A stretch of DNA of 64,000 nt from positions 1,936,001 through 2,000,000 of the forward strand of contig WPIO01000041.1 of assembly GCA_009760855.2 (NCBI GenBank), written 5' to 3'. The stretch comes from Cristatella mucedo. Lineage: Eukaryota; Bryozoa; Phylactolaemata; Cristatellidae. Position numbers and translations under genes: made by a program. This document shows positions 6,301 through 62,730 of the stretch, piece by piece (position 1 is the stretch's first letter; the number at the start of each line of letters is the position of its first letter). The notes under the pieces were generated by a model that made no database searches, was not told where the DNA came from, and saw only the letters and a list, made by a program, of their open reading frames with translations.

Positions 6301-9300
6301 TAGGTGCTTTACATTTGCTGCAAAGGGATATCTGAGTTCATGAACAGCACTGGGGCTCATGGGGAGGGAGAACGCGGTTGCAGCTGCTGTTCGAGGACCA
6401 TCATAATTAGCATCAAAGCGCATCGAAAATGGCAGCAGTAGCAAAGCCAGCTAGCATCACCACCACCACCCCCTCCCTGCCCACACTGGTGTGTACTGCA
6501 CTGCATTTAGCATTGGGTTGTTTTCTACTGCTCTTTTTGTTGTTTTTTGTAGAAGCCGAGATTGCCGAGAGGCTGGCCAAAGTGCGGGCCGCGCAGGATT
6601 CGGGCGCCAAACAGCTGTTAAAGGATCGTGGAGGAGCCAGCAAAGGCAACACTCCAAGTAAGTTTCGATTTGTTTGGAGTTGCTGCCGACTTTTATGCCT
6701 GAGAGTATCACTGTCGGTAACACCAAAGATCTAATAGAAACAGGGCTTCGTTTGGGTCATTGTGGAGTGCCCGCGCATGTGTGAGCTCGTGTGCCCCAAG
6801 CTAGTTCGTGTGTACGTCTGTGTGCATGCATGCAAGATCACGGGCTTGCAAAAACGCCTCTGTGCAAATGTGCAATTGCATACGGTTGCATAAGTTGCTG
6901 TCGAGAAATCTGATGTTTGTGTATGTGATTGTGTGTGTGCATGTTCTTTGTGCATTTATTCCTACTCTTCTGGTTTGGCTATGCTAGAATGCTGTAAGTT
7001 CGTTCTGTAGCAAGTGGGCTTCTTACACTGCTAGACACACTGAAGTTACCCGAAGCATAAGAAAGTATTTATTGCTAACGCAATAACAAACACCTGTGCT
7101 GTTGGTATGTATGTATTTAGTGTGGCATCGTCCTAGCACATTTCATTATGCCCTCCCTTATTGGAGAGGAATAGAGACTACCTGCTTCGGCTTCATGCTG
7201 TCTTTTCTTCTTTAGCACATTTCAAAGAGCTTGTGTTTTACGGAAAAGGCGAAAACTCGTGGTGAAGGCCAAACACCCGACCTCTGCCGCCTGTCGATAT
7301 TGCTCGATAGCAACTGTATAGGGTTCAAATCAGGCGGCTGGCTGAGCTGCTGTGCTGCTTCCCTAGTACCAAATAAGGATTACTAGCCTGGTACGGGTGT
7401 GGTTTTGATAGGTAGGCTGAAGCCAGAGACTGAAGGGAAAATAAATGAGTGATGCTGCTTGATTGGGAATCAGTGCGTGTCGGCATGAAGTGGTGTGACA
7501 TGGCAACTGCTCGCGCTCACGACAGGCAAGTCTAGCCACCGAGTTTTGCACCAACTGTAAGCGAGTGATTGCATTTGCCGGCATCTGCCTGCTTCCTCAC
7601 CAGGGTACATTTCTCTGCATGTACTTCGGCAACCGACTCGTCCTATGCGCATGCCAGCGATATGAGAATAACTGCAGGACATCTTATGGTGGACGGTCTT
7701 TGCCAAGTTTGACTGCTAAACCTGCCTGCCCTTACATGTTTATTTATGGCCATGAGTGCATGCAAGCCACCTGGTAATTTATCGGGGATAGTAATGCCCT
7801 TTCCGGGAAGTATGGAAGCTCGCTTAAACTTATGATGCCGCCTTCACACTCATTTCACCTGCTTCCTTTGCAGCAACACCTGTAGTCTCCACAAGCCAAG
7901 TCGGCTGCAAGACTTGGCCCCCAAAGATGACCGTACTCGGTGTTCACGTGATCGGCGAGGGCTGAGAGCCTTCAAGGCCTCAAACGCATTTATAAAGGAG
8001 CATCCATAGCTACATAGATTCAAGTGAACATGTCTAGTTACCGGTGTGTACACAAGTGTGACATAGCTGTCGGACCAAGACCATAGTTAACTGTGGCTGA
8101 CTCGTGCTCTGCGCGCTCGTTGACCACGTGACCGCTTTCGAATGTGCCCCCTTTCTTTTCTACATTGTTTACATTAGCAATCTTGGTCACAGTAAATATA
8201 AACGAATGAATGCCGGCAGTTGCTCCTTGCACAGCTTTCCCTCGCCAGAACCACGAATGTGGTGGCACTTTTTCCTCCTTTCAAGCACCATGGGGCAGAC
8301 AACGTTTGCAAACAAATTTACATCAAAGCTTGCCTCTAAACAAAGAGGTTCTGTGGACTGCATGCTTTGCCCGTGATTAACTGCGCTAAGCTCTGCGCAG
8401 CTTCAAGCAGCAGAGTGGCACCGGACATCTGGGAGCGATCACAGCCCCCTCCCTGTAAAGGGGGGCGGGGGTCTGGCGATGTCCCCCAGCTCGTGCAGCA
8501 AGTAGAAAATTGGCCGGCATGGCTAGTCGGTCAGCCATTTGTCAGCTGTAGAGTGCAGTGCCTGGTCAAGGATGCAGCAGCTGGCTGCCCGACCACGTGT
8601 CTGACTCGGCTCACACCTACCAGGCCTGCCAGCGGGGTGTAGCAGCTGCCACCCATGCCTGCCACCCCCAGCTCCCCCCCCCTTGGCTCGGCCTCTGCTG
8701 ACGGTGTATTGGGCTTCTGCGTCCCGATGTCTGTCTACGCCCAAGAAGTCTTCTTTCTTTTGTACACCGCTTGTAGATGGGACATTGCGTGTTCTGTTGC
8801 AGATTTTGCGAGCATCCATGCAAAACATTTTGCCAAGATGGAGTCTATCCAATCATACCTGGCCAGAAAGCGCCAGAAGCTAGAAGATACCAACCTCGTG
8901 CTTGGCCTGTCGTCGCCTCAGCTGCAGAAGTCCTCAGTTGACCGTCAAAAAAATGTGTCGGGTCGGGCTTCGGCGTCCAAGGATGCCAAGGCAATGGCGT
9001 CCGCGTCACACATGGCAACGGCTACCATCACTCCAGGTGTTGTTTTCGCCTTTGGCTCGAAGCAGCCGTCGTCCAATGCAAATGGATCTGCCTTTTCCAG
9101 CAGCTCGTCGTTTCAGCAGCAGTCAGCAGCTTCCAGTGACGCTTCGTCGCGAACTTTGCAGGTGACTTTGCCTCTTTTGCTGTTCTCAAGCTTGTTCGTG
9201 TCTACCAGCTCTGCTCTGACCATTCCACCGCCATAGCCTAAAAAAAAGGAAAAGTAAAAAGTAGAAAAATCAGTACAGCTCAGCTTATATGACAGCCTAG

Positions 9301-12300
9301 TTTTGCATTTAGCGCAGGCAGAAGTGCCATTGCGGCCATCACTTGCAGTGGGCGATAAAAATTGCCTTCTGCAAGACTCGACGCTGTGAACTTCCTTTAG
9401 TGCCCGCTTGTGATGTAATGCCACCCACGCCTCAATATGACTCTTCTTTTCCCGTAGGCCCCCCTCCGGGCAGCCAGCTTCTAGCCGGTCTAGCTCTCTA
9501 GCTCGGCTGCAGCAGAGAGAGGTTGCTGCTAAGGACGACGTTGCATCCCACGATGCCTATCGCGATGCTACGGTGTGATCCCATCGCAGCTACGATGCGA
9601 TACCATCACAGCTACCATTTGATCCCATCGCAGCTACCATGTGATTCCATCGCAGCTACGATGCGATCCCATCGATGCTACGATGCGATCCCATCGATGC
9701 TACGATGCGATCCCATCGAAGCTACGATGCGATCCCATCGAAGCTACGATGCAATCCTATCGCAGCTACGATGCGATCCCATCGCAGCCTGCTTCAAAAG
9801 CCGTCTCCCAAGCCTCTTGGCACTCGAAAATCATCCTCGTGGCGCTCATCGACAGATGCTAGCGGCTGTGTCTCGAGGCTGCCCGTGCCGCATCTTGGCA
9901 TCGCCGCCTGTCGGTAGCCGACCGCTTCACGGCAGCCATGCGCCTTGTTTGCAGGAGCATCGGCTCGGTGGCGGCGCTCGCATCGTCAAGCCCGTTCGAG
10001 GCGGAGCTGCGCACGTGGCTCGCGGTTTGGCGAGAGCGGCTGGTTCAGGCTCGGTCGTGACGATCAACAAGACGTCAGCAGCTCAGCATTCGGTCCGGCC
10101 GTCGTCTGCTTGCCCGCCTGCTCAAAAGCGTCCAGGCATGGGCGGTGAGCGGCAGCACCGGCTTGCACTCCTTGCACTCATCCTTGACAGCCATTGCATT
10201 GCTGCATCGCCAGCAATGCTGCGAATCCTGGCACGCCGCTATCATTGAGACCTCCATAGAATCGTGTGGCAATGCAAATGACTCGGCCTCAACCCCCTAG
10301 AGGGTGTAGGGGCGCTCACCGTAGCAATTTACGTGGAGAAACAGGCCCCTGCATTCGCAGATGACGACCCAACTGGTGCTGGGTGCACCCGCCGACCAGA
10401 GACGCGATTTGCCACTTGCGTGCAGCTGTGCAGGTGCCGCCTGCTGGCCACCGCTAGATGCAGCAGCGTGCTCCGAACGATCGTCGTTGAAGTAAAACTT
10501 GCTCCGCTGTTCCAGGTGCCTGGATGCCGTCGAGCTCAGCTGGCCGTAGCAGGCCGGGCCATTCTTTGCAGCCTAAAAGCTCGGCAGCCGCAGCCAAGCA
10601 GTCTCTCTTTGGCGAGGGTGCGGCAGCTGCAAGTCGGACGACGTCCACAACCGGCATTGCTTCATCGGGTGCGTGTCATCCCGGCAAGAAAGCATGCGGC
10701 ATGTAGCTAGCATTGCCTTTTGCCTCCACCTTGCTTTAAGATACTGAGTAAGGATTCCTTTTTCTATTTTTTTAATTCCATTAGAGATAATAATAGATTT
10801 AATCCCATTGGAGATCATAATAGATTTAATCCCATTGGAGATCATAATAGATTTAATCCCATTGGAGATAATAAGAGTAGATTGTTTATAATGATAATAA
10901 TAGTAATAATAGAACACTTGATAAAGCACTCTCAGAGAACTGAATCTCTTCCTAGGCACTTTACATTTGTTGCAAAGGAAGGACGATTGAGTGGTTAGTA
11001 GTAGCATGCTCAATCAACAACAGCAATAACATGTTTAGGGGTGATATGCACAGGGTCAGCATGCAAGTGTGGTTAGTGGCACCATGCACAGTGTCAGTAC
11101 ACATAGACACATAAAGGACAGATCACAGGGACCCACTAAATGCTATCATAAATAGATGCGTTTTAGTTTCATTTTAAATGTGGACAAGTCAGGAGATGTC
11201 GTGACGGAAATCGGGAGTGAGTTCCAGGCTCTGGAAGCATACGAACTAAAGGCACTGCCTCCAAAAGATTTGAGATTTGCACGAGGTATGGGTAAACGGT
11301 TAGATTCCGAAAAGCAGGTGGTACGATGCTTAGCCTGGTCGGGATGTAGATCCAATAGCGGGACCCAAATGAAGGGACTTAAAAGTCAGCGACAAAACCT
11401 ATAAGTTGCTTGACTGAGAGCCAGTGCAGGTCGGCAAGAAGTGTTGTGATGTGGCAACTGCGACTCTCACGACAGACAAGCCTAGCTGCAGAGTTTTGCA
11501 CCAGCTGTAAGTGCCTGATTGCACATGCCGCAAGGCCAGCAAGCATTGGGTTAGAGAAGTCACAAACGGGCGGGGTGTCACAAATGTCACTGGCGGTATG
11601 TTGCAAATGCATGGACCAACTTAGATGCGGTATACCTATCTAAATAAGCCTGAATTTTAGCAATATTATGTAGCTATAAGTAAGTAGACTTGACTGTGGA
11701 GCTAATGTGATATGACACCTAGATTTTGTGCAGATTCAACAGATGTGCTGGCAGAGCCGATTTTGAGCCTTTCAATTTCTGAATCACACTTGGTTTACCC
11801 ACAACTAGTAAGTTAGTTTTATCAGCATTCGATTTAAGAAAGTTTGTTGCCATCCTTTTGCTGATGTCATCAATACATGCAGCAAGGGAGTTGAGAGAAT
11901 TCGACGTGCTGGAGGGCTGGGAGGGATCAAAGCAAAGGTACAGCTGAATGTCATCAGTAGAATCAGCAGTGAAAGCCTCGATTGATGTTCAGTGTATGAC
12001 CGAGCATCAGGCATGTTACTATGACAAGTTTTCTCGTTTGTTAGTGCGTTCGACTATGACTTGTAGGATGTGCTGTCGACCGAGCATCGAGCATCCTAAA
12101 TACGACGTTCACCATTTCCCGGGGAGCATTCGATCCACAGCAAACCGGTCACGTCAAAAACGCTGCTGTTGCTTGTGAGCAACCTTGCGGCGGGCCTGCT
12201 AAGCCCACCGATGTCTACAAGAAGCCAGTCCTGAAGACAAGGTAGAGTCGTACACACTGTGTCGTTTGTACCTGTTCGTTTGTCTTTCTTTCCTTTGCTG

Positions 12301-19800: not shown

Positions 19801-22800
19801 CTCTTCCAAAAAGCAGGGATTGCAAGCTGCTCCATCCAGAAGGTGTAATAGTAGTAACAATGATGTACACTCGATAAAGCGCCCTCTGAGAACTCAAATC
19901 TTTTTCTATGCACATTACGTTTGCTGCAAAGGAGTGAGAATGACGTCGGCTTATCTCAAGCTGTTGCTTACCGCAATAAGACCCTTGGCTGTATCGGGTG
20001 TTGTTTGCAGCACGATGTGATTGGCAGGGTAAAAAACTACTGTCGACCTGCTGCATGTGCGTGTGGATGTCTGTTCCTACTATGCTTGGATATGAACCAG
20101 CTGGTCGTTATTTCCTATAAGGTGCTGGTTTTTTCGGCAAGCCTTCGGCTAAGACTTTCAAGTGGATGTCGTCTCGACGGCCCTGACGTTTACTGTGTGA
20201 CGGTCGTTTGCCAGCGTGGCACCCTCCGTTGTATGCAACCTCCACTGTGCTTGTTCTTGCTCTAGCCACCGGTTCATTTTTGACTCAGGTGATTCACGGT
20301 GGCAACTACGATGTGGACGTGGAGGTGAAATCTCCCGACGGACGTACCCTGTATAGGGAGACACGAAGGCAATATGATTCGGTCACCGTCACGGCTGAGC
20401 TGCCTGGCCAATACGAGTTCTGTTTTAGCAATGAGTTCTCTACTTTTTCTAACAAGTTAGTGTACATAGACGTTCAGGTGGGCGAGGAGAAGCCAATCGT
20501 GCCACACATGGCCGAGCATGCCACCGCTCTCACCCAGGTGAGTCACTTTGTGAGCCAAGATCCACGTGCGCACTCTAGCGACCTCATATTAAACTTCATC
20601 TCGAAGTCTATGATAGCCCCGGGTCTTAGCTCTGGAGTAAAGTGCTCACTCTTCACGACCCGAGTCGTGGATTAATGTCTTGCAGTGGGAGATCCTATAT
20701 TGCTCACTGCAAGAAGTCGTGATCGCCACTAAGGCTCTTCTGCTGCTATATAAATGAGGCTGTTGAATCATCTAACCTTTTTTTAAGAAGACTAATTGCC
20801 CTCCAGGCCGTATATCTACTGATCTCCACTGAGATGCTTGGATTCGCTGCAGCCCTGCATAACTAACTAATAAATATGTCCTGAGCTTTGGGTATTGTCC
20901 GTGTAACCATCAAAATGGCTGTTGTTAGACCACTCAAGAAGGCCACACTAGACCGGGAGACTTTAAGCAGCTTTTGCATAGACGTCCCTACTGCAGTTCT
21001 TATAAAAGGCACTAGAACAGGTAGTGGCAGACCATCTAAACTTCAGACCTAGCAAGTAAGTAACTTTCAGGTTTTAGAGCTAATCACTCCACAGAGTCAG
21101 ACAGAGTGAGTATATGACCTCTTCAGAAAGGCAGGCTTTGGTAATAATAATAATGCACTTGATAAAGCGCCCTCAGAGAACTTATCTCTCCATGGGCGCT
21201 TTACATTTGCTGCAAAGGGAAATGCAATTGAATGGTGAGTAAAATCGTGCGTGATAAACAAACAAAATGAATAGTGTCTCTCTGCTTGTTTTGCTGTACC
21301 TTTCGGCAACATTTATACTATTGATCACTAAGTTTTTGAGTACCTGTCACCTTGCGTTGACATCACTGGCACGGTACTGAAGCGGTACTAGCTCAATGAG
21401 GGATTTCAAGGAACTGAATTCAATAGGCAACAGTCATCCAAGGAAGCTCTAATGAACGGGGTAGGCAGAGATCCGTATATAATATGCTTCTTTTCACAAT
21501 GTATACTCTCCCATTGCTAAGCTCAAGCTATGCTTTCATTCTCATGCAGATGACAGCTGTACATGTGCTTTGATCCGTTGCTGCCTTCCAGCACTTAAAA
21601 CTCTCTTAACACCCTTGCAGAATGTATTGAATATTTGCACTAGGATGGCAGCAAACTTTCTAAAATTGAATGGCGATCTAACTAACCTATTACTTATGGG
21701 AAAACCTAGTGTCACTCAGAACTTGGAAAACGTAACCCTCAAAATAGACGAAGCCAGTATATCTCCTATAGCATCTGAACTCAATATGGATGTCCTGTTC
21801 TGAAGTGACATTTCACTAGACGATCTTATCAGCTCCGAAATCAAGTCTGCCACTTTCAACCGATAAGCATTGCTAAAATTATAACCTGCCTAAACAGGGA
21901 TGCCACATCCAAGTCTCTATGTCGTATGCGACTTGCATCCCAACTAGTCGAACCTTAGTAGATCCCTGTATATGGGTGAAGCCTGGTGAGGTACATTCTT
22001 GTGACTTGTATACACCTTTAGCTTCAGTATAGCTTGATGCCTTGTAAATTCTATAACTCGGCTAATAGTAAACGTATCAGAGTGATATTAAAATACGACT
22101 TCAGCTCTGCTTGATTTACATAATTCTAGAAACAATGTGGATTTCGATTGGAGTAGCATACCATCTGGCATAATGTCAAGCTGTCCTGCAAATATGAAGC
22201 GGTACTTTGTCTACCAGGAACATGGTCTGTCAATCAGGCCTGCTCAGAAGGTGTTTTTTTACTCAGAAATTCCTTGGCGACTCCGGCTTCAAGCAGCTGT
22301 CGGATCTCATTTTTTCTCAGCTCTGCTTGTTTTACACGAGTCCGGAAAACTTCTGATTTTGGTTGGATAGATTTTGCTGTATACTTCGTCAAACGTCCTG
22401 GAGTTTTATTTTCCGTAATCGTGGACATTAGAGCAAAGTGTATCCAACCGAAATGAGAAATTTTCCAGACTCGTAAAAACAAGAGAGCTGAATGTTTCAA
22501 ATTTCACTCCGATACGTGAAGTATTAGCTGAGTTATGGAATTCACAAGGCACCAACCGACCCTGGAAATGAAGCTGCATAAAAGTCACAAGAATGCACCT
22601 CAACCAGATTCAATCATGTAGTGCGATCTAGCAAGGTTCGACAAGTTGGGATACAAGTCGCATATGATGCAGCGATCGGTAGACGCTTTATTTGTCAATT
22701 TGTTCGTTCTATTTTACATCCAGGTTAGATGTGGTTTGCATAACCATTTTTTCTTTCATGCGGAAGTCGTCAGAACTTCCAATCCCAGTTCTAACACATT

Positions 22801-25463: not shown

Positions 25464-26925
25464 CGGCTAATGTAATGTAATGTATCTCCGTCAGTAACTC
25501 CACAAAGTCATAAGGACCATGTGGGTGTTACGCAGGAGAGTTTTGTATAGCGCACTCGCAGCCTAAGCGGCTTTCGGTACGACTTCGTCTCACGCAACAA
25601 AGAGAAAGTGGGAAGCATAGCAGAGTCAGGAGAGCAGTTGAGGTAGTGAGTAGCATAGAAGTAGCAGTTCAGGACCGCTGAAAAAGATGTGCCATAGTCG
25701 GCAGTTGGAGAGTAGTTGTCGTTGCGTAAGAATTGTGGAAGCGAGTTCCACAGTCTAGGACCTGCAGAGCTAAAGCTTCTGTCGCCAACTGTCTTTAAGC
25801 AGAGGAATGGGACAGCTAATTTATTGTCCACACAGGACCTGAGGGCGCGAACAGGCTGAAACTAATGAAGCAGTTCAGCTAGGTACGAAGGAGCTAAGCC
25901 GTGGTGGGCCTTGTGGGTCAGCTTAAGAATTTTGCTTTGTATCCTTTGCTCAACCGGTAACCATCCCAGCTCTTTCAGCAGAGGTGACACGTGCTCAAAC
26001 TGCTGGGACTTGAAGACCAGCCTTGCAGCCATATTCATAGTCAGCTGTAGTGGCATAATAGCTTTCTTTGGCAGCCCAGCCAAAAGTGAATTACAATAAT
26101 CAAGCCGAGACAGAACTAAAGAGCTAGTTAAATTTTTTACATGCCACTGTGGGAGATGGCTTCTAATCTTGGATAGGGATCGGATGTGATGGCTAGCTGT
26201 AGAGGCAGTCTTCTGAATGAAGCTTTTGAAATTGAGGCAGCTGTCGAACACGACACCTAGATTACGAGTACGTGGTGAAGGTCGCACAATAGCATCACCT
26301 ATTAGAACAGCAAAGCCTTTTCATCCAGCCACACGCTTAGGGTGTCCTATGAGCAGCAGTTCGGTTTTATCATCATTTAACTTCAGGAAGTTTTCCGACA
26401 TCCCGGATCGAATATCGGCAAGGCAAGCATTCAGTTTCTCAGTTGCTGCAGCAGATTCCGACGGTTTACATGACAGATACAACTGAGTATCGTCAGCATA
26501 GAAGTGATGTCCTATTCCATGGGCCTTAATCACTTTTCCCAGAGGTTGTGTATAAATGGAGAACAGCAAGGGACCGAGTACAGACCCTTGAGGGACTCCA
26601 CAGGTGACACTTCTCATGTCTGAGACCTGAACCCCACACGACATGGATTGAACACGATCAGACAAGTATGATTTAAACCCCGCCAGTGCTTCGTCTGCCA
26701 GACCGATCGTTGTTCTCAATCGTTCAAGCAGAACTTCGTGATCAATGGTGTCGAAGGCAGCAGACAGATCTAGCAGAGCTAGGGCAGTGACATTCCCGTC
26801 GTCGTTGCCACGTAGAATGTCATTGTTAACACGGAGGAGAGCAGTTTCAGTAGAGTGCTGCCTCTTGAACCCTGATTGAAATGTTTCTGACATTCCATTA
26901 TTTTCAATGTGTTCAACTAGCTGCT
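25464..26925 (-). mobile_element. LINE family A with reverse transcriptase, 5' truncated
   Basis: Minus-strand CR1/L2-group reverse transcriptase remnant. It has GFKRQHSTETALLRV, LDLSAAFDTIDHEVL, GVPQGSVLGPLLFSIYTQPL and the catalytic box FYADDTQLYL, then the C-terminal region ([20 protein letters not shown]). It is about 90% like the copy at 34609. A TGA after KRVAG and a frameshift kill it. The 3' end is a short run of ATGTAATGTA, the reverse of the family tail. Confidence 0.93.
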
Positions 26926-27919: not shown

Positions 27920-28198
27920 TGTAGTTTGACTGTATGCCGGCTCCTCTAATGAGCCTGTGATGTGGCATGGACACAGGCCGGTAACCGCTGGTGGCCAGAT
28001 GGTGGATTCACCATCAGGGTCGGCCGCTGCACAGTTGTGGTCCTCGATGAATCATCGGGGTCAACCAGAGGAGTGGAGGAGGAGAGACTCGAGTGTGAGA
28101 AGGGGGCGAAGGCAGTCGTGCGTCTTGCTGCTCCGTGCCGCCGTGTGCAATAAACCGTTGGCGTTGTTCTGGGCCAGCGTTCCGTATGCCGAACCACA
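27920..28198 (+). repeat. 5' LTR
   Basis: 279 bases, TG...CA, with AATAAA (28149-28154) about 45 bases before its end, which also fixes the sense strand as +. Confidence 0.92.
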
Positions 28199-28225
28199 AG
28201 CTATTTCGTGGGATGGAGCCGATGA

Positions 28226-28510
28226 CGCCCTTGCGCAGCGTCCCTAGGCTTCGACGGCTTCGGAGACTTCATTGGCTGGCTGCTGAACTTCGAGAGGGAG
28301 ATCGATAAAAGTGGCTACGAACAGAGTGAGTGCCACTTGTTTTTGCTCCTTGCGATGCAAGGCGGGGCCTTCACGTTTGCCTCGGGGCTACCGCAGGAAG
28401 TTCAGGATGACTATGCCAAGCTTCGTGAGGCCCTAGTGAGGGCATTCACCTCGCCGGCCGGTAGAGCACGATTGCTGCACGCTAATCGGGTAAAGGCTGG
28501 TCGGACTTAA
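28226..28510 (+). CDS. Gag-like domain (Ty3/gypsy type) of the LTR element
   Basis: 94 codons after an in-frame TGA, ending at TAA (28508-28510). Visible landmarks of the Ty3/gypsy Gag capsid region are FDGFGDFIGWLLNFEREI, then a helix with LFLLLAMQGGAFTFASGLP, then QDDYAKLREALVRAF. The start codon lies further upstream or is lost; the first in-frame ATG is internal. Across the stop the same frame stays open to 29662. No CCHC zinc knuckle is seen. Confidence 0.75.
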   Translation, partial: RPCAASLGFDGFGDFIGWLLNFEREIDKSGYEQSECHLFLLLAMQGGAFTFASGLPQEVQDDYAKLREALVRAFTSPAGRARLLHANRVKAGRT

Positions 28511-28642
28511 AGGGCCGACAGGAGCGACCGGAAGCGGCAGCAGCGATCACCGACTGTGTGCCATGCAACAGAGGCTTGTCAGGCTGCCACCCCGTGGTGG
28601 CAGGCAACGGCTATCAAAGCGGTGACGGTTGGTCAGGCTGCG

Positions 28643-29662
28643 ATGGTGTTCCACGAAGCAACGGCGTTGTGCGAGGCAACGGTCAGCGGTGTGGCTGAGG
28701 CGACGGAGAGTGAGACGGTGCACGGAGAGGCAGCGGTGTCCGCGTGGAAGGCGGCGACGTCTGTGTGGAAGGCGGCGGCGTCCGCGTGGAAGGCGGCGGC
28801 GTCTGCGACAGAGTCGGTGGCGTCTGCGACAGAGTCGGCGGCGTCCGCGACAGAGTCGGAGGCGGCTTCCACGACAGAGTCGGCGGCGTCCGCGACAGAG
28901 TCGGCGGCGGCGTCCGCGGCAGAGTCGGCGGCGGCGTCCGCGGCAGAGTCGGCGGCGGCGTCCGCGACAGAGTCGGCGGCATCCGCGACAGAGTCGGCGG
29001 CGTCCGTGACAGAGTCGGCGGCGTCCACGTGGAAGGTGGTGGCACCCGCGAGGAAGGTGGCGGCGTCCGCGACAGAATCGGCGTCCGCGTGGAAGGCGGT
29101 GGCGTCCGCAACAGAGTCGGCGGCGGCGTCCGCGTGGGAGGCGGCGGCGTCCACGAGGAAGGCGGCGGCGCCCGCGACAGAGTCGGCGGCGTCCGCGATA
29201 GAGTCGGTGGCTGCGTCCGCAGCAGATTTGGCGGCTTCCTCCAGAGAGGTAGTGGCCGGCGATGCAGCACAAGCCATGAAGGTGACGCTGGCCTGCGACC
29301 AGCCGGTGGGCTGTGACGCGGCACAGGCAGGAGAGTGTGTGCAGACTCTTCGGTCTGCACAGGCCGGAGAGACTGTGCAGGACGGAGAGGCTGTCCAGCA
29401 GGGAGAATTTGTGCAGGCCGCAGAGACTGTGCAGGCCGGAGAGACTGCTCAGGTTGGAGAGGGTACGCAGGACGGAGAAGCAGCTGCGTATATCGGAGAC
29501 GCTGCGGAAGAATCGGCAGAGGCGGATGGAGCGACGGCGGTTGGTGTCCGGAAAACAGTGGCCGTGGACGTCAGCTCGATGACGATGGTCGGCGGCTCAC
29601 ATTGCCGGCTGGTCGCAAAAGGCCGTGCACCAGCTCGCCTCTTGCGATCAGCCGTCAGGTAG
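28643..29662 (+). CDS. repeat-rich ORF downstream of Gag, same frame
   Basis: From the first ATG this frame runs 339 codons; it is open all the way from the codon after the Gag TAA. It contains 21-bp units giving Ala/Ser/Thr/Glu heptads (ASATESA-like, some ASAWKAA) at about 28735-29230. After these come 18-bp units giving VQAGET-like hexads at about 29330-29480, and then a unique tail ending in ARLLRSAVR. Because units are multiples of three and lack stops, all frames stay open inside the arrays, so an intact frame there means little. What supports coding is that the non-repeat flanks are open too and share the Gag frame. No function can be assigned. Confidence 0.5.
   Translation: MVFHEATALCEATVSGVAEATESETVHGEAAVSAWKAATSVWKAAASAWKAAASATESVASATESAASATESEAASTTESAASATESAAASAAESAAASAAESAAASATESAASATESAASVTESAASTWKVVAPARKVAASATESASAWKAVASATESAAASAWEAAASTRKAAAPATESAASAIESVAASAADLAASSREVVAGDAAQAMKVTLACDQPVGCDAAQAGECVQTLRSAQAGETVQDGEAVQQGEFVQAAETVQAGETAQVGEGTQDGEAAAYIGDAAEESAEADGATAVGVRKTVAVDVSSMTMVGGSHCRLVAKGRAPARLLRSAVR
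28735..29235 (+). repeat. GC-rich 21-bp minisatellite inside the LTR element
   Basis: About 20 units related to GCGTCCGCGACAGAGTCGGC, some with GTGGAAGGC in place of GACAGAGTC. The period is 21 with occasional 18- or 24-base units, all multiples of three. Confidence 0.9.
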
Positions 29663-29838
29663 CCTGTGGGGTCAGCTATTGATGTTAGCTGCCATGTCGA
29701 GGATGTGTATGGTCTAGTTTGCATCGTTCATAGATAGGCTCGTTCATTGCTGCTTAGATAGGCTCGTTCATGCTGCCCTGTACGTTGCAGCTACGTGTGT
29801 TGGTGCTGCAAACTTGTGACCTTAAGGTCAAGGGGGCG

Positions 29839-30113
29839 TGTAGTTTGACTATATGCCGGCTCCTCTAATGAGCCTGTGATGTGGCATGGACACAGGCCGG
29901 TAACCGCTGGTGGCCAGATGGTGGATTCACCATCAGGGTCGGCCGCTGCACAGTTGTGGTCCTCGATGAATCATCGGGGTCAACCAGAGGAGTGGAGGAG
30001 GAGAGACTCGAGTGTGAGAAGGGGGCGAAGGCAGTCGTGCGTCTTGCTGCTCCGTGCCTTGTACAATAAACCGTTGGCGTTGTTCTGGGCCAGCGTTCCG
30101 TTTCCGAACCACA
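29839..30113 (+). repeat. 3' LTR
   Basis: 275 bases, nearly identical to the 5' LTR; differences include GTGCCGCCGTGTGCAA versus GTGCCTTGTACAA and TATGCC versus TTCC near the end. Confidence 0.92.
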
Positions 30114-30159
30114 GGTTTGAGCGTTCTTAAGCTGCGATTACACGGCAGACTTTCCTTCT

Positions 30160-30474
30160 TGTCGTTTGGTTCGCACAGCAGAGCCAGCCGATGAACAACG
30201 CCAACAGTTTATTATGCGACGTACGGAGCCGAGGGTCGCACGACTCCCTTCTCCCACTCGACTCTCCTCGACTGGCCCTGTGCCCTGGCCGACCCCAATG
30301 ATTCATCCGAGGACCACAGTTGTGCACAGGCCGACCCTGGTGGTAAATCCGCCATCTGTTCACCAACTAGGTTACCGGCCTGTGTCCATGCCACATCAGA
30401 GGCGGACAACAGCTGTGCACCGGCCCCTCTCGGCGATGCTCCTAACAGCTGTTCACCAGCGGTTTTAGCAGAGT
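30160..30474 (-). mobile_element. related solo LTR, 5' truncated
   Basis: Minus-strand relative of the LTR above: its 3' end reads CGAACCAAACGACA at 30160, with AATAAA upstream and the shared blocks 'ggcatggacacaggccggtaa' and 'ggtgaacagctgttagga'. The 5' end is lost near 30474. No target duplication was found. Confidence 0.75.
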
Positions 30475-31689: not shown

Positions 31690-33150
31690 CGAGTTCAAGT
31701 TCTCGTCTTACAGTCCCACTTGACAACAAGACGGTCTGTAAGCTTTACTCTGGCGAGAATCCTGTTGGTTCTGGAAATGCACTTTTGGAACTGTTCGCCA
31801 ACAAAACATTAAGCTCGGCTACACAAATCTGATATCCAACATCAAGCAGAAGCACCCGAATCATCTAGAAATGTTTCACTTGGCAAAACAAGCACGTGGA
31901 AACGGCCAATCCGAAACAGCAAATGTCATCACCGGAACTAGAAATCAGTATCTGTGTGATTTTATTTAATTGATGACACTGCCCCTGATCGCTGTACGAG
32001 TGGGCTGTGACAATCGATGCGGTAAGCAGCCCGGACGTGCTAATAATGGTTGTTTTGACAAGGGAGTCGGGGGGGACTCCGGTGGGCGAGAGGGGCGAGG
32101 AGAGTCGTGCTTCGCTCTGCTCCGTGTGGAGGGAGAATAAACTGGTGGTGTTGCTCGTCGGCTAGCGCTCTGTGCCATTCGCGACGATAATTCAGACTGC
32201 AATCTGGAAAGACCACCTTGGAATACATGCTTGAGAATCGATCAACCAATGTATTCAAATGGCTGGAATGGAACGTCATGGATGAACTCAAATTGATCTT
32301 CTGCGAAAAAGAGCTCACCCGAAGCAATACGAAACTGGGACCGATCTCTGTCAAAACACTGAAGAAATATATGCTCAAGCTGGTGGAGGCGGTGGAAAAA
32401 AATCTGTCAATGTCGCTACTGCTACCTCTTTCACTCTTTCGTTTGATGGCTGGTCTTAGAACTTGACACACTCCGTCTTTTTATCATCTACCCTGGCATG
32501 GAGCATGCTGCTGATCCTGAAATTCATCTGTTCGCCTCCTCCTCACCTCTCTTTGACGAGACAAATTGTACTGCCGAGAACCATGTGAATTTCATCATAT
32601 CGATACTGTAGTGGTTCTCATTGTCTCTCAACCCCCTTTTCGGTTTAATCGGGGACGTCTGCTCAACCAACAAGGCAACAGCGGGCCTTCTTGGTGTGCC
32701 ACATCTGGGATGCCGCAGTTACCGTTTTAACTTGGCTGTTGAGGCATACACTAGCACATTCCTCACAACTGCATCGGAGTTGATAGGAAAGATCATGTCA
32801 AAGTTGTCAACACTCAAACAATTAGGTCGATTGCGCTTTATGCCATCCCTGCGCCCAGTCAAGCGAAACGTGATCCGCTGGACAGGCGTTCCAAATATGT
32901 TCAGCGCTTCGAAAGACTCCTTCCAAATCTTGACGAGGCAGACGATGAAATAATGGACCTTGCTCCCACAGCTGGGCAGAAAAGGAATACTCGGGATCGC
33001 AAGCAAGCATTGGCACATTAAAAATCTGTTTCGATAGCGCGCTGCAGCAATGCGACATGTCGTTGAAAGAATCGCACGTTTTATTCCGATCGATCATTGA
33101 CTCGTACCCAGAGTTTGCCTCCAACCACTGCCTTGGCAAAGATTCATAAA
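31690..33150 (+). pseudogene. hAT transposase remnant
   Basis: Pieces of one transposase in shifting frames. A BED-finger-like end (GYTNLISNIKQKHPNHLEMF) lies near 31820-31880; FKWLEWNVMDELKLIFCE, LTRSNTKLGPISVKTLKKY and a Leu-rich helix lie at 32250-32460; DETNCTAENHVNFIISIL, LIGDVCSTNKATAGLLGVP and YRFNLAVEAY lie at 32555-32750; KLSTLKQLGRLRF and LRPVKRNVIRWTGV lie at 32800-32890. GDVCSTN-x-A and the C-x4-FNLAV block belong to the RNase H-like core of animal hAT transposases. Stops, frameshifts and the LTR insertion rule out function. Confidence 0.85.
31971..32194 (+). mobile_element. solo LTR inside the hAT element, diverged
   Basis: Shares with the other LTRs the blocks 'gggagtcg', 'gctctgctccgtg', AATAAA and 'ggtgttgctcgtcggcta'. 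Edges are approximate. TAATT occurs at both edges (31967-31971 and about 32188-32192) but does not line up cleanly with TG...CA ends. Confidence 0.6.
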
Positions 33151-34158: not shown

Positions 34159-34231
34159 GTTTCTATGGTGTAGCGGTTATCACGTCTGCCTCACACGCAG
34201 AAGGTCCCCAGTTCGATCCTGGGTAGAAACA
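34159..34231 (+). tRNA. trnV-CAC: tRNA-Val (anticodon CAC)
   Basis: Full 73-nt cloverleaf: acceptor GTTTCTA pairs with TAGAAAC plus discriminator A; A-box TGGTGTAGCGG; anticodon stem TCTGC/GCAGA with loop CTCACAC and anticodon CAC at 34192-34194; T arm CCCAGTTCGATCCTGGG. No CCA is encoded and there is no intron. A T-run (34233-34238) just downstream fits a Pol III terminator. It differs clearly from the SINE heads and looks like a working gene. Confidence 0.95.
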
Positions 34232-34608: not shown

Positions 34609-37310
34609 TGTCTCTCACTGTTGCGATATACCGGCCTCATTCTGGCTGTCTAAACTTGTTAACAGAGGAGTTTTCAGAGTTCCTCGCTAAAATATTTGTG
34701 TGTGATAGGCCGTTACTGATTGTAGAAGACTTCAATACTCGCGTTGACAACCCTAGCAACAGCCAGTCCCGCTCATTTCTTGACTGTCTGGAGAATTTCG
34801 GTTTGGTCCAACCACCCACGTCGGTGGCCACATTCTAGATCTCGTGATCACTAAGGTTGTCCTTCCCACTGACCTTGTGGTGTGCCCACTGACCTTCTCA
34901 GGTCATTGTTCGGTCTCGTTTACTGTTTCTGCTCCCTTGTACGTACAGGGAAATGTCGAACTTGTCAAACGACGTAACTTACAAAGCATTGACATGGACA
35001 AGTTTTTGAAATATTTTTGTGATGCAGGTCTTCTTGATCTGCATTCAGACTCGACCGGCAGCCTCGATACCCTCACTAATGCAGTGAAAATGACACTCGG
35101 GAGTGCTCGTGATAAGAATGCCCCGTTCATTCTACCCGTGTTCAAAGCCGTGGAGATTCATTTCAATTTACAAAGAAACTCCTAAATGTGCGCCGGGTTT
35201 AGCGCAGGCTTGAACGTCGTTTCAAGAAATCGGAGTCTCATGCAGATCTAGTCAATTTCAAAGACTTCCTTCGAGTTTACACCCGAAAGCTTAAAAAAAA
35301 CCAGGGCTTCTTTTTTCATCCGAAAGCTGAATTCCTGCCAGTCGGACCCTAAACAGATTTATAAGATAGTAAACCATTTACTGGCCAATGCTGTGAGGTC
35401 TGACTGCCCAGATATTAAGGGCTCAGCCGAAAGGTTTTCAGCCTTCGTTGCTGAAAAAATTGTGCACATTCGTGCCTCCATTAAGTCCCCTCCGACTAAA
35501 GCAATCGCGGTTCCACAACCTGTGACTTTCCTTAAAAGGTTCTCTGAGGTTTCTGCATGAGATGTGGCTACCTTAATAAGGTCTAGCAAAATGAGCTCGG
35601 CACCTGAAGACCCTATACCTTCATCTCTGTGGTCTTCACTGACAGACCAACTTAGCCCTGCCATAACCAAGATTCTTAAGGCTTCTCTGGGAAAAGGGGT
35701 CGTCCCCAAGTCCTTCAAATCGGCAATCGTTAGAACCATACTTAAAAAGCCTGGATTAGATACAGAGGTCCTTGTAAACTATCACCCAGTTTCACTTCTT
35801 CTTTTCTTGTCAAAGATTCTTGAAAGAATTGTTGCTAAGCAGCTGTTTGAACACATTGAAAATAATGGAATGTCAGAAACATTTCAATCTGGGTTTAAAA
35901 AGCAGCACTCTACCGAAACTGCTCTCCTCCGAGTTAAGAATGACATTCTTCGTGGCAATGACGATGGGAATGTCACTGCGCTAGCTCTGCTATATCTGTC
36001 AGCTGCCTTCGACACCATTGATCACGAGGTTCTGCCTGAACGATTGAGAACAATGATCGGTCTGGCAGATAAAGCACTGGGGTGGTATAAATCGTACTTG
36101 TCTGATCGTGTTCGATCCATGTTGTGTGGGGGTCAGGTCTCACAAACGAGAAGGGTAACCTGTGGAGTCCCTCAAGGGTCCGTACTCGGCCCCTTGCTGT
36201 TCTCCATTTATATATAACCTCTGGGAAAAGTGATGAAGGCCCATGGAATAGGATATTACTTCTATGCTGATGATACTCAGTTGTATTTTTCATTCAAACC
36301 ATCGGAATCTGCTGCAGCAACTGAGAAACTGAATGCTTGCCTTGCCGATATTCGATCCGGGATGTCGGAAAACTTCCTGAAGTTAAATGATGATGAAACT
36401 GAACTGCTGCTCATAGGACAACCTAAGCGTGTGGCTGGATTAAAAGGCTTTGCTGTTCTAATAGGTGATGCTATTGTGCGACCGTCACCACGTGCTCGAA
36501 ATTTAGGTGTCGTTTTCGGCTGCTGCCTCAATTTTAAAAGCTTCATTAAGAAGACTGCTTCTGCAGCTAGCCATCACGTCCGATCCCTATCCAAGATTAG
36601 AAGCTGTCTTCTACTGTAGCTTGCAAAAAATCTAACTAGCTCCTTAGTTCTGGCTCGGCTTGATTATTGCAATTCCTTATTGGCTGGGCTGCCAGAGAAA
36701 GCTATTAGACCACTGCAGCTGACTATGAATATGGCTGCAAGGCTAGTCTTCAAGTCCCAGCGGTTTGAGCACGTGTATCCTTTGCTAAAAGAGCTAGAAC
36801 GACTGCCGGTTGATCACTGGATACAGAACAAGTTCTTACGGTGACCCACAAGGCCCACCACGGCTTGGTTCCTTCGTACCTAACTGAACTGCTGCATCAG
36901 TTTCAGCCTGTTCGCGCCCTCAGGTCCTGTGTAGACAATAAATTAGCCGTTCCTTTCCTCCGCTTAAAGACCGTTGGCGACAGCAGCTTTAGCTCTGCAG
37001 GTCCTAGACTGTGGAACTCGCTTCCACAATTCTTACGCAACGACAACTACTTTCCTACTGCCGACTATGGCTTATCCTTTTCAGCGGTCCTGAGCTGCTA
37101 CTTCCATGCAACTCACTACCTCAACTGCTCGCCTGACTCTGCAATGCTTCCCACTTTCTCTTTGTTGCGTGAGAAGAAGTCTGTTGACTACCGAATGCGT
37201 ACCGAAAGCCGCCTAGGCTGTGAGTGCGCTATACAAAACTCTCCTGCGTAACACCCACCTGGTCTATATGACTTTGTGGAGTTACAGACGGAGATACATT
37301 ACATTACATT
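34609..37310 (+). mobile_element. LINE family A, longest copy: endonuclease plus reverse transcriptase
   Basis: Begins inside the endonuclease domain (SLTVAIYRPHSGCLNLL, LLIVEDFNTRVDNPS, FSGHCSVSFTV) and continues into the reverse transcriptase: FKSAIVRTILKKPGLD, FQSGFKKQHSTETALLRV, LSAAFDTIDHEVL, GVPQGSVLGPLLFSIYI, YYFYADDTQLYF. The CR1/L2-type C-terminal region follows ([54 protein letters not shown]). It ends with 'gagatacattacattacattac', a short repeat instead of poly(A). At least five stops or shifts (for example TAA after FSIYI) make it inactive. Confidence 0.95.
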
Positions 37311-39722: not shown

Positions 39723-45103
<5,381 letters not shown>

Positions 45104-45227
45104 GCGCTGGCGCACTTAAGAAGTATTCACGCAGTCCCGAATTCAATTGCGACGCCGCTTTGTCGCTTTCTCTGTCGCTCTGAAAATTCAAGTCGCTGCA
45201 GTTGAAACGAGAAGAAAATCGTAAATC

Positions 45228-45620: not shown

Positions 45621-46048
45621 GCCCGCATGAGCACAATGGAAAGCCGCGCCGAAAAACGTGGAAGGAGAGCCCAGTTTAGAGGGAACCGGCAGACCGAAGT
45701 GTCACTGTGGCGGTGCCGGTATCGCTTTCTTGTCGTCAGCTACCTCGAAACGCTAGGCAAGCATAAAGACCACCACACAGAGCAGTCCCTAATAAAAAAA
45801 AATGCATAGGCAAGGAGATGCACCATAAACTGCAGAAACAGCCACGTTAACGACGGTAGATAGACTCTCTTATTGATGCCCAAACTCAGAGTTTTGCATG
45901 CCACTAATACCGGTTTTTTCAGGCCACGCTTGCTAGTATTCTGGGAGCACTGAGCCACATCACGTTGTCACGAGCCGTACCAAGCTGTCTGGAGTGCTAT
46001 CAAGCTAGCTAGATCCCTAGCAAGCTCTCTGTCTCTGTCCCACTCCGT

Positions 46049-46553
<505 letters not shown>

Positions 46554-62315: not shown

Positions 62316-62730
62316 TGTAGTTCGTATGTATGTATTGTATGCAGGCTCCTCTGATAAGTCACTGGTGAGCTGTTAGAAGCACCACCGAGAGGGACCGGTG
62401 CACTGCTGTGGTCCGCCTGTGATGTGGCATAGACACACGCAGGTAACCAGCTGGTGGCCAGATGCTGGATTCACCATCAGGGTCGGCCAGTGCACTGCTG
62501 CGGTCCGCCTGTGATGCGGCATGGATCAGCTGGTGGCCAGATGGTGGATTCACCATCAGGGTCGGTCGGTGCACAGTTGTGGTCGATGAACCATCGGAGT
62601 CGACCAGGGGACAGGGGAGTCGTGTGAGAGTAGGGGCCGAGGGGAGCCGTTCGCTCTGGGGCTCCGTGCGTTGGGAATAAACTGTCGGTGTTGGGCATCG
62701 GCTGGCTCTCTGCTGTGCGACCAAACTACA
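62316..62730 (+). mobile_element. solo LTR, 415 bp
   Basis: TGTAGTT...AACTACA ends are perfect inverted 7-mers. AATAAA is near 62679. Flanks are GGGAG (62311-62315) and AGGAG (62731-62735), a 5-bp target duplication with one change. A 100-base segment ('ctggtggccagatg...gtcggccagtgcactgctg') is duplicated inside, which makes it longer than the 279-base LTR at 27920. Confidence 0.88.

What the first reader, a model, noticed from the sequence alone, without database searches (positions are those of the whole stretch)
28226..29662. Gag domain followed in the same frame by a long Ala/Ser/Thr/Glu repeat protein inside a young non-autonomous LTR element
Seen: the frame of the Gag-like domain is open from 28226 to 29662 except for one TAA at 28508. 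The downstream part holds 21-bp units (heptads) and 18-bp units (hexads), and its non-repeat flanks are also open. Known: Ty3/gypsy elements normally follow Gag with protease, RT and integrase, all absent here. Inference: this could be a Gag with a repeat-expanded C-terminal extension kept as one ORF (or read through the stop), carried by a parasite of autonomous relatives. The heptad period suggests an extended helix. I know of no described element with this layout, but I could not search.
Basis: partly seen in the sequence, partly recalled or inferred. Interest (0 to 1): 0.78.

Follow-up and report, generated by a model that had tools for sequence, protein, structure and literature searches.

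The report
Gag-only retrotransposon with repeat-coded protein tail
This is a dead copy of a common jumping gene, probably of an animal, that carries only a shell-protein gene ending in a long, variable repeat, and that probably moves by borrowing enzymes from a larger relative found in the same genome.

Summary
An LTR element (27920-30113, TSD GGTTT) has one frame open from 28226 to TAG at 29660, broken only by TAA at 28508. This copy also lacks 11 nt of leader, including the Gag start codon of its sisters, so it is dead. Array length is 60-745 nt, in frame in 40 of 45. Gag and the unique C-terminal part show signs of purifying selection; the array shows none. Gag and tail co-occur in relatives down to below 70% Gag identity. 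A related long element (L080, one copy read) carries a homologous Gag, zinc knuckles, protease, RT, RNase H and integrase, and shares LTR ends, a 14-nt LTR-leader junction, PPT region and TSD length. Best reading: a semi-autonomous element, TR-GAG- or Quinta-like, mobilised in trans. Its protein keeps only a CA-NTD-like domain; a minisatellite-coded Ala-rich extension stands where CA-CTD and zinc-knuckle NC usually lie. New variant of a known kind; function of the extension untested.

The parts
27920..30113 (+). whole non-autonomous LTR element (2194 bp)
   Evidence: LTR pair and exact 5-bp TSD; the Gag-region DNA query has 383 first-look candidates in the genome, 40 scored
27915..27919 (+). 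target-site duplication GGTTT, left
30114..30118 (+). target-site duplication GGTTT, right
27920..28198 (+). 5' LTR
   Evidence: 1799 first-look candidates in the genome, 40 scored
29839..30113 (+). 3' LTR
28194..28207 (+). LTR-leader junction CCACAAGCTATTTC (putative primer-binding region), shared with the autonomous relative
   Evidence: 75 exact copies in the genome against 0 of the pattern read backwards; also in L080
28199..28228 (+). leader, 11 nt shorter than in most sister copies; the Gag start codon of the sisters lies in the missing stretch
28226..28507 (+). Gag piece (CA-NTD-like domain from about 28250)
   Evidence: 40% identity over 67 aa to the Gag of a gag-pol element; coding frame 5 stops in 43 copies against 176 and 217 in the other plus frames, piece 28262-28507
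28508..28510 (+). TAA in the Gag frame
   Evidence: of 48 other copies aligned, 1 has a stop at this codon, 2 a gap, 45 sense
28511..28727 (+). linker with Arg-rich stretch; same frame
   Evidence: mean dN/dS 0.32-0.67 against four relatives
28728..29240 (+). 21/24-bp units, Ala/Ser/Thr/Glu heptads
   Evidence: array 60-745 nt among copies, 40 of 45 a multiple of three
29241..29358 (+). unique stretch between the two arrays, same frame
29360..29478 (+). 18-bp units (hexads)
29486..29662 (+). conserved C-terminal tail ending in TAG
   Evidence: protein query: 235 candidates, 150 scored, 153 matches; mean dN/dS 0.38-0.57 against four relatives
29663..29838 (+). 3' untranslated part with polypurine tract before the 3' LTR
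   Evidence: 90% over 83 nt to L080
62316..62730 (+). solo LTR of the autonomous relative's family, in the same window
   Evidence: 92% to both LTRs of L080 over 412 nt; ends placed by eye

Best explanation
The window holds a dead copy of a semi-autonomous LTR retrotransposon. Intact sister copies encode a single protein. It has a short N-terminal Gag capsid domain, an Arg-rich linker, a variable number of Ala-rich heptads coded by a 21-bp minisatellite, a short hexad array and a conserved basic C-terminus. Shown: the architecture, the one-ORF state in sisters, signs of purifying selection on the Gag and unique C-terminal parts, and a Gag-homologous gag-pol element (L080, one copy read) with the same LTR ends, LTR-leader junction, PPT region and 5-bp TSD. 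Inferred: reverse transcriptase and integrase come in trans from that family; the short element's protein joins the particle or acts on its own RNA (otherwise its ORF would decay); and the extension takes the multimerising and RNA-binding roles that CA-CTD and the zinc-knuckle NC have in ordinary Gag. Array length probably changes by slippage or template switching (inference); unit lengths that are multiples of three keep the frame.
For: Sister ORFs. In-frame array lengths, 40 of 45. Stops in the coding frame 5 in 43 copies, 7 in 44, 2 in 45, 1 in 41 for four pieces, against 22-217 in the other plus frames. Singleton versus shared changes: Gag N/S 61/22 against 17/18, p 0.011; C-terminal unique parts 151/61 against 52/41, p 0.012; no p below 0.05 in the other two plus frames for either set. 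dN/dS and shuffles. Gag places with a listed tail downstream: 47 of 54, 27 of 37, 18 of 28, 8 of 31 by falling Gag identity. Partner. No zinc-knuckle, protease or RT-integrase piece of L080 matches any of the 79 other held loci, so the short family is pol-less where I could look.
Against: No match to a Pfam Gag family for the window piece, and none for L080's Gag piece either; L080's is called Gag by its place before the zinc knuckles. No usable fold match in PDB or viral libraries. Without CpG sites the C-terminal polymorphism test is weak (128/46 against 31/19, p 0.12), and no single C-terminal piece but the last is below 0.05 for shared against single (linker 0.31, mid 0.34, tail 0.04). Some pairwise tests show no constraint (Gag of L077, L078, L079; linker of L076, L078). 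dN/dS among the four relatives in the tail is 0.66-1.69. The array shows no amino-acid-level constraint. On the minus strand the mid part and one tail frame are also poor in stops. No expression, particle or mobilisation data. LTR identity to the partner is 90% over 100 nt and 74% over 213 nt, so a closer, unseen partner is possible.
Confidence: 0.72

Rival explanations
1. The ORF is a relic: the short element is a plain parasite whose protein does nothing, and frames look intact because copies are young and descend from a coding ancestor.
For: 26 of 39 copies are not complete (one of them, L024, only because its contig ends). Singletons look near neutral (N/S 61/22 in Gag). Stops and frameshifts are common.
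Against: Shared changes are poorer in nonsynonymous ones, in frame only. Tail dN/dS is 0.38-0.57 against four relatives with 68-85% Gag identity. The architecture is kept across that range.
Confidence: 0.14
2. The short protein is an interfering Gag: a truncated capsid domain that enters or blocks particles of the autonomous family to favour the short RNA or to limit copy number.
For: It has only the CA-NTD-like part, no zinc knuckle, and an unrelated extension. Truncated Gag inhibitors exist (Ty1 p22, recalled).
Against: No functional data; the same features fit a helping Gag.
Confidence: 0.09
3. The repeats are a non-coding minisatellite; the open frame is only GC-rich repeat sequence without stops.
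For: Several other frames are open across the array; no amino-acid-level constraint inside the array.
Against: Unique flanks on both sides are open in one plus frame only across copies and show constraint in that frame; 40 of 45 array lengths are multiples of three, though the unit lengths themselves favour that.
Confidence: 0.04

Closest known systems
RLG_Quinta with partner RLG_Cereba, wheat centromeres (PMC11302176, passages incl. abstract)
   Same: Non-autonomous LTR element with one ORF for Gag plus a domain of unknown function; autonomous partner shares PBS and LTR ends, and PPT by the abstract.
   Different: Plant pair at centromeres; here the host is an animal (inferred), only the first capsid half is recognisable, and the extra part holds a variable minisatellite-coded repeat.
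TR-GAG elements (Chaparro 2015, not held; known from passages of PMC8704663 and PMC10552921)
   Same: LTR pair with a single Gag ORF and no pol; an Arabidopsis TR-GAG was seen to transpose (PMC8704663).
   Different: Told of plants in the passages read; no repeat extension was mentioned there.
pol-less Athila families with Gag under purifying selection (PMC2410132, passages incl. abstract)
   Same: Whole families without pol keep ORFs under negative selection.
   Different: Plant; passages read tell of Gag and Env, not of a repeat tail.
Ty3 Gag (PMC6525542, passages)
   Same: Ty3 CA-NTD is a bundle of four helices; the AlphaFold model here has four main helices and one short one.
   Different: No CA-CTD or zinc knuckle found in the short element; no fold-search match.

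Membership tests
TR-GAG | LTR pair with target-site duplication | tested here: met
   16 of 23 copies with two comparable LTRs have an exact 5-bp TSD at the predicted ends
TR-GAG | single ORF coding for Gag, no pol | tested here: met
   13 of 39 copies; no zinc-knuckle, protease or RT-integrase match of L080 in the window or 79 other loci; Gag by homology to L080
TR-GAG | Gag with zinc knuckle (usual in Gag; not said to be defining in the passages read) | tested here: not met
   homology to L080 Gag ends after 67 aa; no Pfam zinc knuckle in the window pieces or the L076 ORF
Quinta/Cereba-type pair | PBS region shared with an autonomous family | tested here: met
   14-nt junction identical; primer tRNA not identified
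Quinta/Cereba-type pair | LTR termini and PPT shared with an autonomous family | tested here: met
Quinta/Cereba-type pair | extra part fused to Gag | tested here: met
Quinta/Cereba-type pair | centromere targeting | not tested
   no centromere map
Ty3/gypsy (partner L080) | protease, RT, RNase H, integrase in that order | tested here: met
   Pfam gag-asp_proteas in one piece; RVT_1 29-105 (E 1.7e-4, below its cut-off), RVT_3 272-316, rve 461-549 in the next; no RT tree made
Ty3/gypsy Gag (short element) | match to a Gag family or capsid fold | tested here: inconclusive
   no Pfam Gag, no fold match, but homologous to L080's Gag piece
TRIM | very short, no coding capacity (recalled) | tested here: not met
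   1.8-2.4 kb in 23 copies with a long ORF in 13 of 39

The most novel reading that the evidence does not exclude
An animal LTR retrotransposon lineage has split in two. The short member supplies a re-engineered Gag in which the second capsid domain and zinc-knuckle nucleocapsid have been replaced by a length-variable Ala-rich helix and basic tail. The long member supplies the enzymes. The two co-assemble or compete, and the short one has persisted through a wide range of divergence with the extension under selection.
Probability: 0.3. Interest if true: 0.68.

Novelty: new variant of a known kind. Interest (0 to 1): 0.47.

Why it matters
Gag-only partners are known in plants; this looks like the same strategy in an animal, with an added twist. 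A coding minisatellite sits inside a Gag gene, so the protein changes length from copy to copy while both its ends are conserved. That gives a natural series (about 3 to 35 heptads by array length) to test what a Gag extension does, and whether capsid proteins can work without the usual second domain and zinc knuckle. It also suggests how a short element can be kept coding by selection rather than being a mere passenger.

Tried and rejected
Read-through of the TAA: not needed, as most copies have a sense codon there. Chance openness: rejected by stop counts in six frames across copies. Selection inside the array: tested and not found; lag-21 single-site changes give S/N 360/718 in the coding frame against 355/674 and 145/790 in the other plus frames, stops 7 against 22 and 3 (in that script the coding frame is offset 2). 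Indel phase outside the arrays: too few shared indels to say anything. A partner was first sought with this element's own LTR (40 of 1799 candidates scored): of 20 loci fetched, 8 show parts of the short family and 12 only an LTR within about 2.5 kb on each side; none holds zinc-knuckle, protease or RT-integrase pieces like L080's. The partner was found with the LTR at 62318-62729. A PBS from a tRNA 3' end was looked for by eye: no TGG directly follows the LTR; resemblance of AGCTATTTC to the complement of the 5' side of tRNA-Phe is recalled, not tested. Fold searches gave nothing usable (model pLDDT 76; single-sequence model 58). IMG/VR scan with the Gag piece: no relative confirmed. PDB sequence searches: no Gag. 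Paper searches for a gag-only, TR-GAG or repeat-tailed element: no animal gag-only or repeat-tailed Gag element seen in the listings; listings only, and most subscription journals are not held.

Full report
Observation. In window 28226-29662 one forward frame is open except for TAA at 28508 and ends in TAG at 29660. It lies in an LTR element of 2194 bp (27920-30113) with LTRs of 279 and 275 bp, 4 substitutions between them over 275 sites, an exact 5-bp TSD and a purine tract before the 3' LTR. Two tandem arrays are present: 21/24-bp units (28728-29240) and 18-bp units (29360-29478). Array openness alone is weak evidence, because several other frames are open there too.

State of this copy. Besides the TAA, this copy lacks 11 nt of leader that hold the Gag start codon in sisters. 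The distance from leader motif to Gag is 63 nt here. Of 50 other copies given to the script both landmarks matched in 39: 74 nt in 36, 75 in one, 83 in one, out of range in one. At the TAA codon, of 48 other copies aligned, 45 have sense codons, 1 a stop, 2 a gap. So the copy is dead, and intact copies exist.

Sister copies. The host genome is 572 Mb in 688 contigs. The Gag-region DNA query has 383 first-look candidates, of which 40 were scored, all 94-100% identical. I fetched the 39 others. A tail match lies downstream of Gag in 38 of 39; L024 is cut by its contig end, and in some (L023, L012, L040) only part of the tail is matched. In 13 of 39 the frame runs from ATG to the shared C-terminus and TAG (339-475 codons after the start); a fourteenth (L039) carries a tail motif but ends out of frame. 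Seven more copies from the LTR search (L056-L060, L066, L072) were added to later counts where their pieces aligned; L070, with part of a tail only, was left out. The array is 60-745 nt long in the 45 copies where both sides could be placed, and a multiple of three in 40. LTR pairs could be compared in 23 copies, this one included: K2P 0.004-0.084, median 0.030; 16 of 23 have an exact TSD.

Coding evidence. Stops summed over copies in the coding frame: Gag 5 in 43 copies, linker 7 in 44, mid part 2 in 45, C-terminal tail 1 in 41. In the other plus frames they number 176/217, 53/94, 136/46 and 40/22. On the minus strand the mid part (2, 5, 0) and one frame of the tail (8) are also poor in stops. 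Variants seen once (mostly after insertion, by inference) against variants shared by two or more copies: Gag nonsynonymous/synonymous 61/22 against 17/18 (Fisher p 0.011; without CpG sites 57/18 against 8/11, p 0.010). Unique parts of the extension: 151/61 against 52/41 (p 0.012; without CpG 128/46 against 31/19, p 0.12). By piece, all sites: linker p 0.31, mid part 0.34, tail 0.04. In the other two plus frames no p is below 0.05 for Gag or for the joined extension parts. Copies count, not events, so relatedness inflates these numbers.

Against four more distant copies (L076-L079, chosen for divergence and long frames) mean dN/dS in frame is 0.35, 0.50, 0.62, 0.89 for Gag, 0.66, 0.37, 0.67, 0.32 for the linker and 0.40, 0.44, 0.38, 0.57 for the tail (29486-29659). 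In frame it is the lowest of the three plus frames in 9 of these 12 comparisons. For the longer stretch 29243-29659, hexads included, it is 0.49, 0.51, 0.51, 0.77, the lowest of three frames in 3 of 4. Between the four themselves the tail gives 0.66-1.69, which is against my reading, though on about 50 codons. In shuffles that keep base and CpG class (12 family copies drawn for each, 150 shuffles each), the synonymous count was reached by a median of 0.7%, 57%, 28%, 78% (Gag); 36%, 3%, 59%, 4% (linker); 2%, 2%, 3%, 16% (tail). So constraint is clearest for the C-terminal tail and for Gag at the largest distance. Within the array there is no sign of it.

Depth of the architecture. A Gag protein query scored 150 of 816 candidates, identity 100 down to 55%. 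A tail query listed 150 of its 153 matches (150 of 235 candidates scored). Of Gag places, 47 of 54 (90% identity and over), 27 of 37 (80-89), 18 of 28 (70-79) and 8 of 31 (below 70) have a listed tail 0.3-2.5 kb downstream on the same strand. The fused layout is therefore older than the young copies.

Partner. The LTR at 62318-62729 of this window (full extent about 62316-62730) gave, among 40 scored of 2100 candidates, LTR pairs about 3.6-4.2 kb apart at five places. One, L080, was fetched. Its two 412-bp LTRs are identical, TSD TATCC. Between them lie a Gag piece, zinc knuckles (zf-CCHC, 2.3e-8, two stretches), an aspartic protease (1.3e-7), RT (RVT_1 1.7e-4, below Pfam's cut-off), RNase H-like and integrase core (rve 1.9e-11). 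Its Gag piece itself has no Pfam match and is called Gag by its place. This copy's frames are interrupted and were searched piece by piece. Its Gag matches the window Gag at 40% over 67 aa (E 6e-13 for a single comparison), ending near where the window protein turns into the linker. Neither linker nor tail matches L080. LTR blocks match at 90% over 100 nt and 74% over 213 nt, and the PPT region at 90% over 83 nt. LTR starts (TGTAGTT), LTR ends (AACCACA) and the first nine leader bases are the same. The 14-nt junction occurs 75 times in the genome and the pattern read backwards never; at least 55 of the 75 lie beside a Gag place. Zinc-knuckle, protease and RT-integrase pieces of L080 match none of the 79 other loci held nor the window, so no closer partner was seen in what I fetched.

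Reading. This meets the kind of criteria that the Einkorn study used to pair RLG_Quinta with RLG_Cereba (PMC11302176, passages incl. abstract): shared PBS, LTR termini and PPT, with the short member coding only Gag plus an unknown domain. TR-GAG is the plant class of gag-only elements; one was seen to transpose in Arabidopsis (PMC8704663, passages incl. abstract). Pol-less Athila families keep ORFs under purifying selection (PMC2410132, passages incl. abstract). What differs here: the host is probably an animal (NUSAP, p24 and Deltex-type domains; that these point to an animal is recalled); only the first capsid half is recognisable; no zinc knuckle was found; and a coding minisatellite of variable length sits inside the ORF. 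An Arg-rich stretch after the capsid part is kept in the four relatives and a basic C-terminus is readable in them; they may bind RNA, which is inference. AlphaFold with 22 rows gives four main helices and a short one (pLDDT 76); Ty3 CA-NTD is a four-helix bundle (PMC6525542, passages). No library match supports the fold.

Verdict. It is a new variant of a known kind, not a new kind.

Noticed in passing
62316-62730: Solo LTR of the autonomous relative's family, flanks GGGAG/AGGAG by eye (4 of 5 alike). 2100 first-look candidates for this LTR in the genome, 40 scored.
   Followed up: yes
30120-30470 (-): A third related LTR type, 77% over 225 nt to this element's LTR; 2307 first-look candidates, the best 39 other places 81-86% alike.
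   Followed up: partly
32075-32173: A further LTR-like piece, 71% over 101 nt to this element's LTR.
   Followed up: no
L009 344-658, in the orientation: A second 3' untranslated piece abuts the 5' LTR, as if elements were arrayed sharing an LTR.
   Followed up: no
28199-28207: Leader has no TGG directly after the LTR; AGCTATTTC resembles the complement of the 5' side of tRNA-Phe (recalled), so priming may be unusual in both families.
   Followed up: no
25862-26923 (-) and 35561-36217 (+): Two fragments with LINE-like RT; 163 nt of them are 91% alike in opposite orientation.
   Followed up: no
8643-9233, 20187-20672, 44486-45112 (-): Likely host exons: NUSAP, EMP24/p24 and RING with Deltex C-terminal domain, pointing to an animal (recalled).
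   Followed up: partly
46025-46553: 529-bp CT-rich microsatellite.
   Followed up: no
9567-9788: About ten 22-bp units GCTACGATGCGATCCCATCGCA, each partly palindromic by eye.
   Followed up: no
34159-34231: tRNA-Val (CAC) gene, about 4 kb from the element.
   Followed up: no
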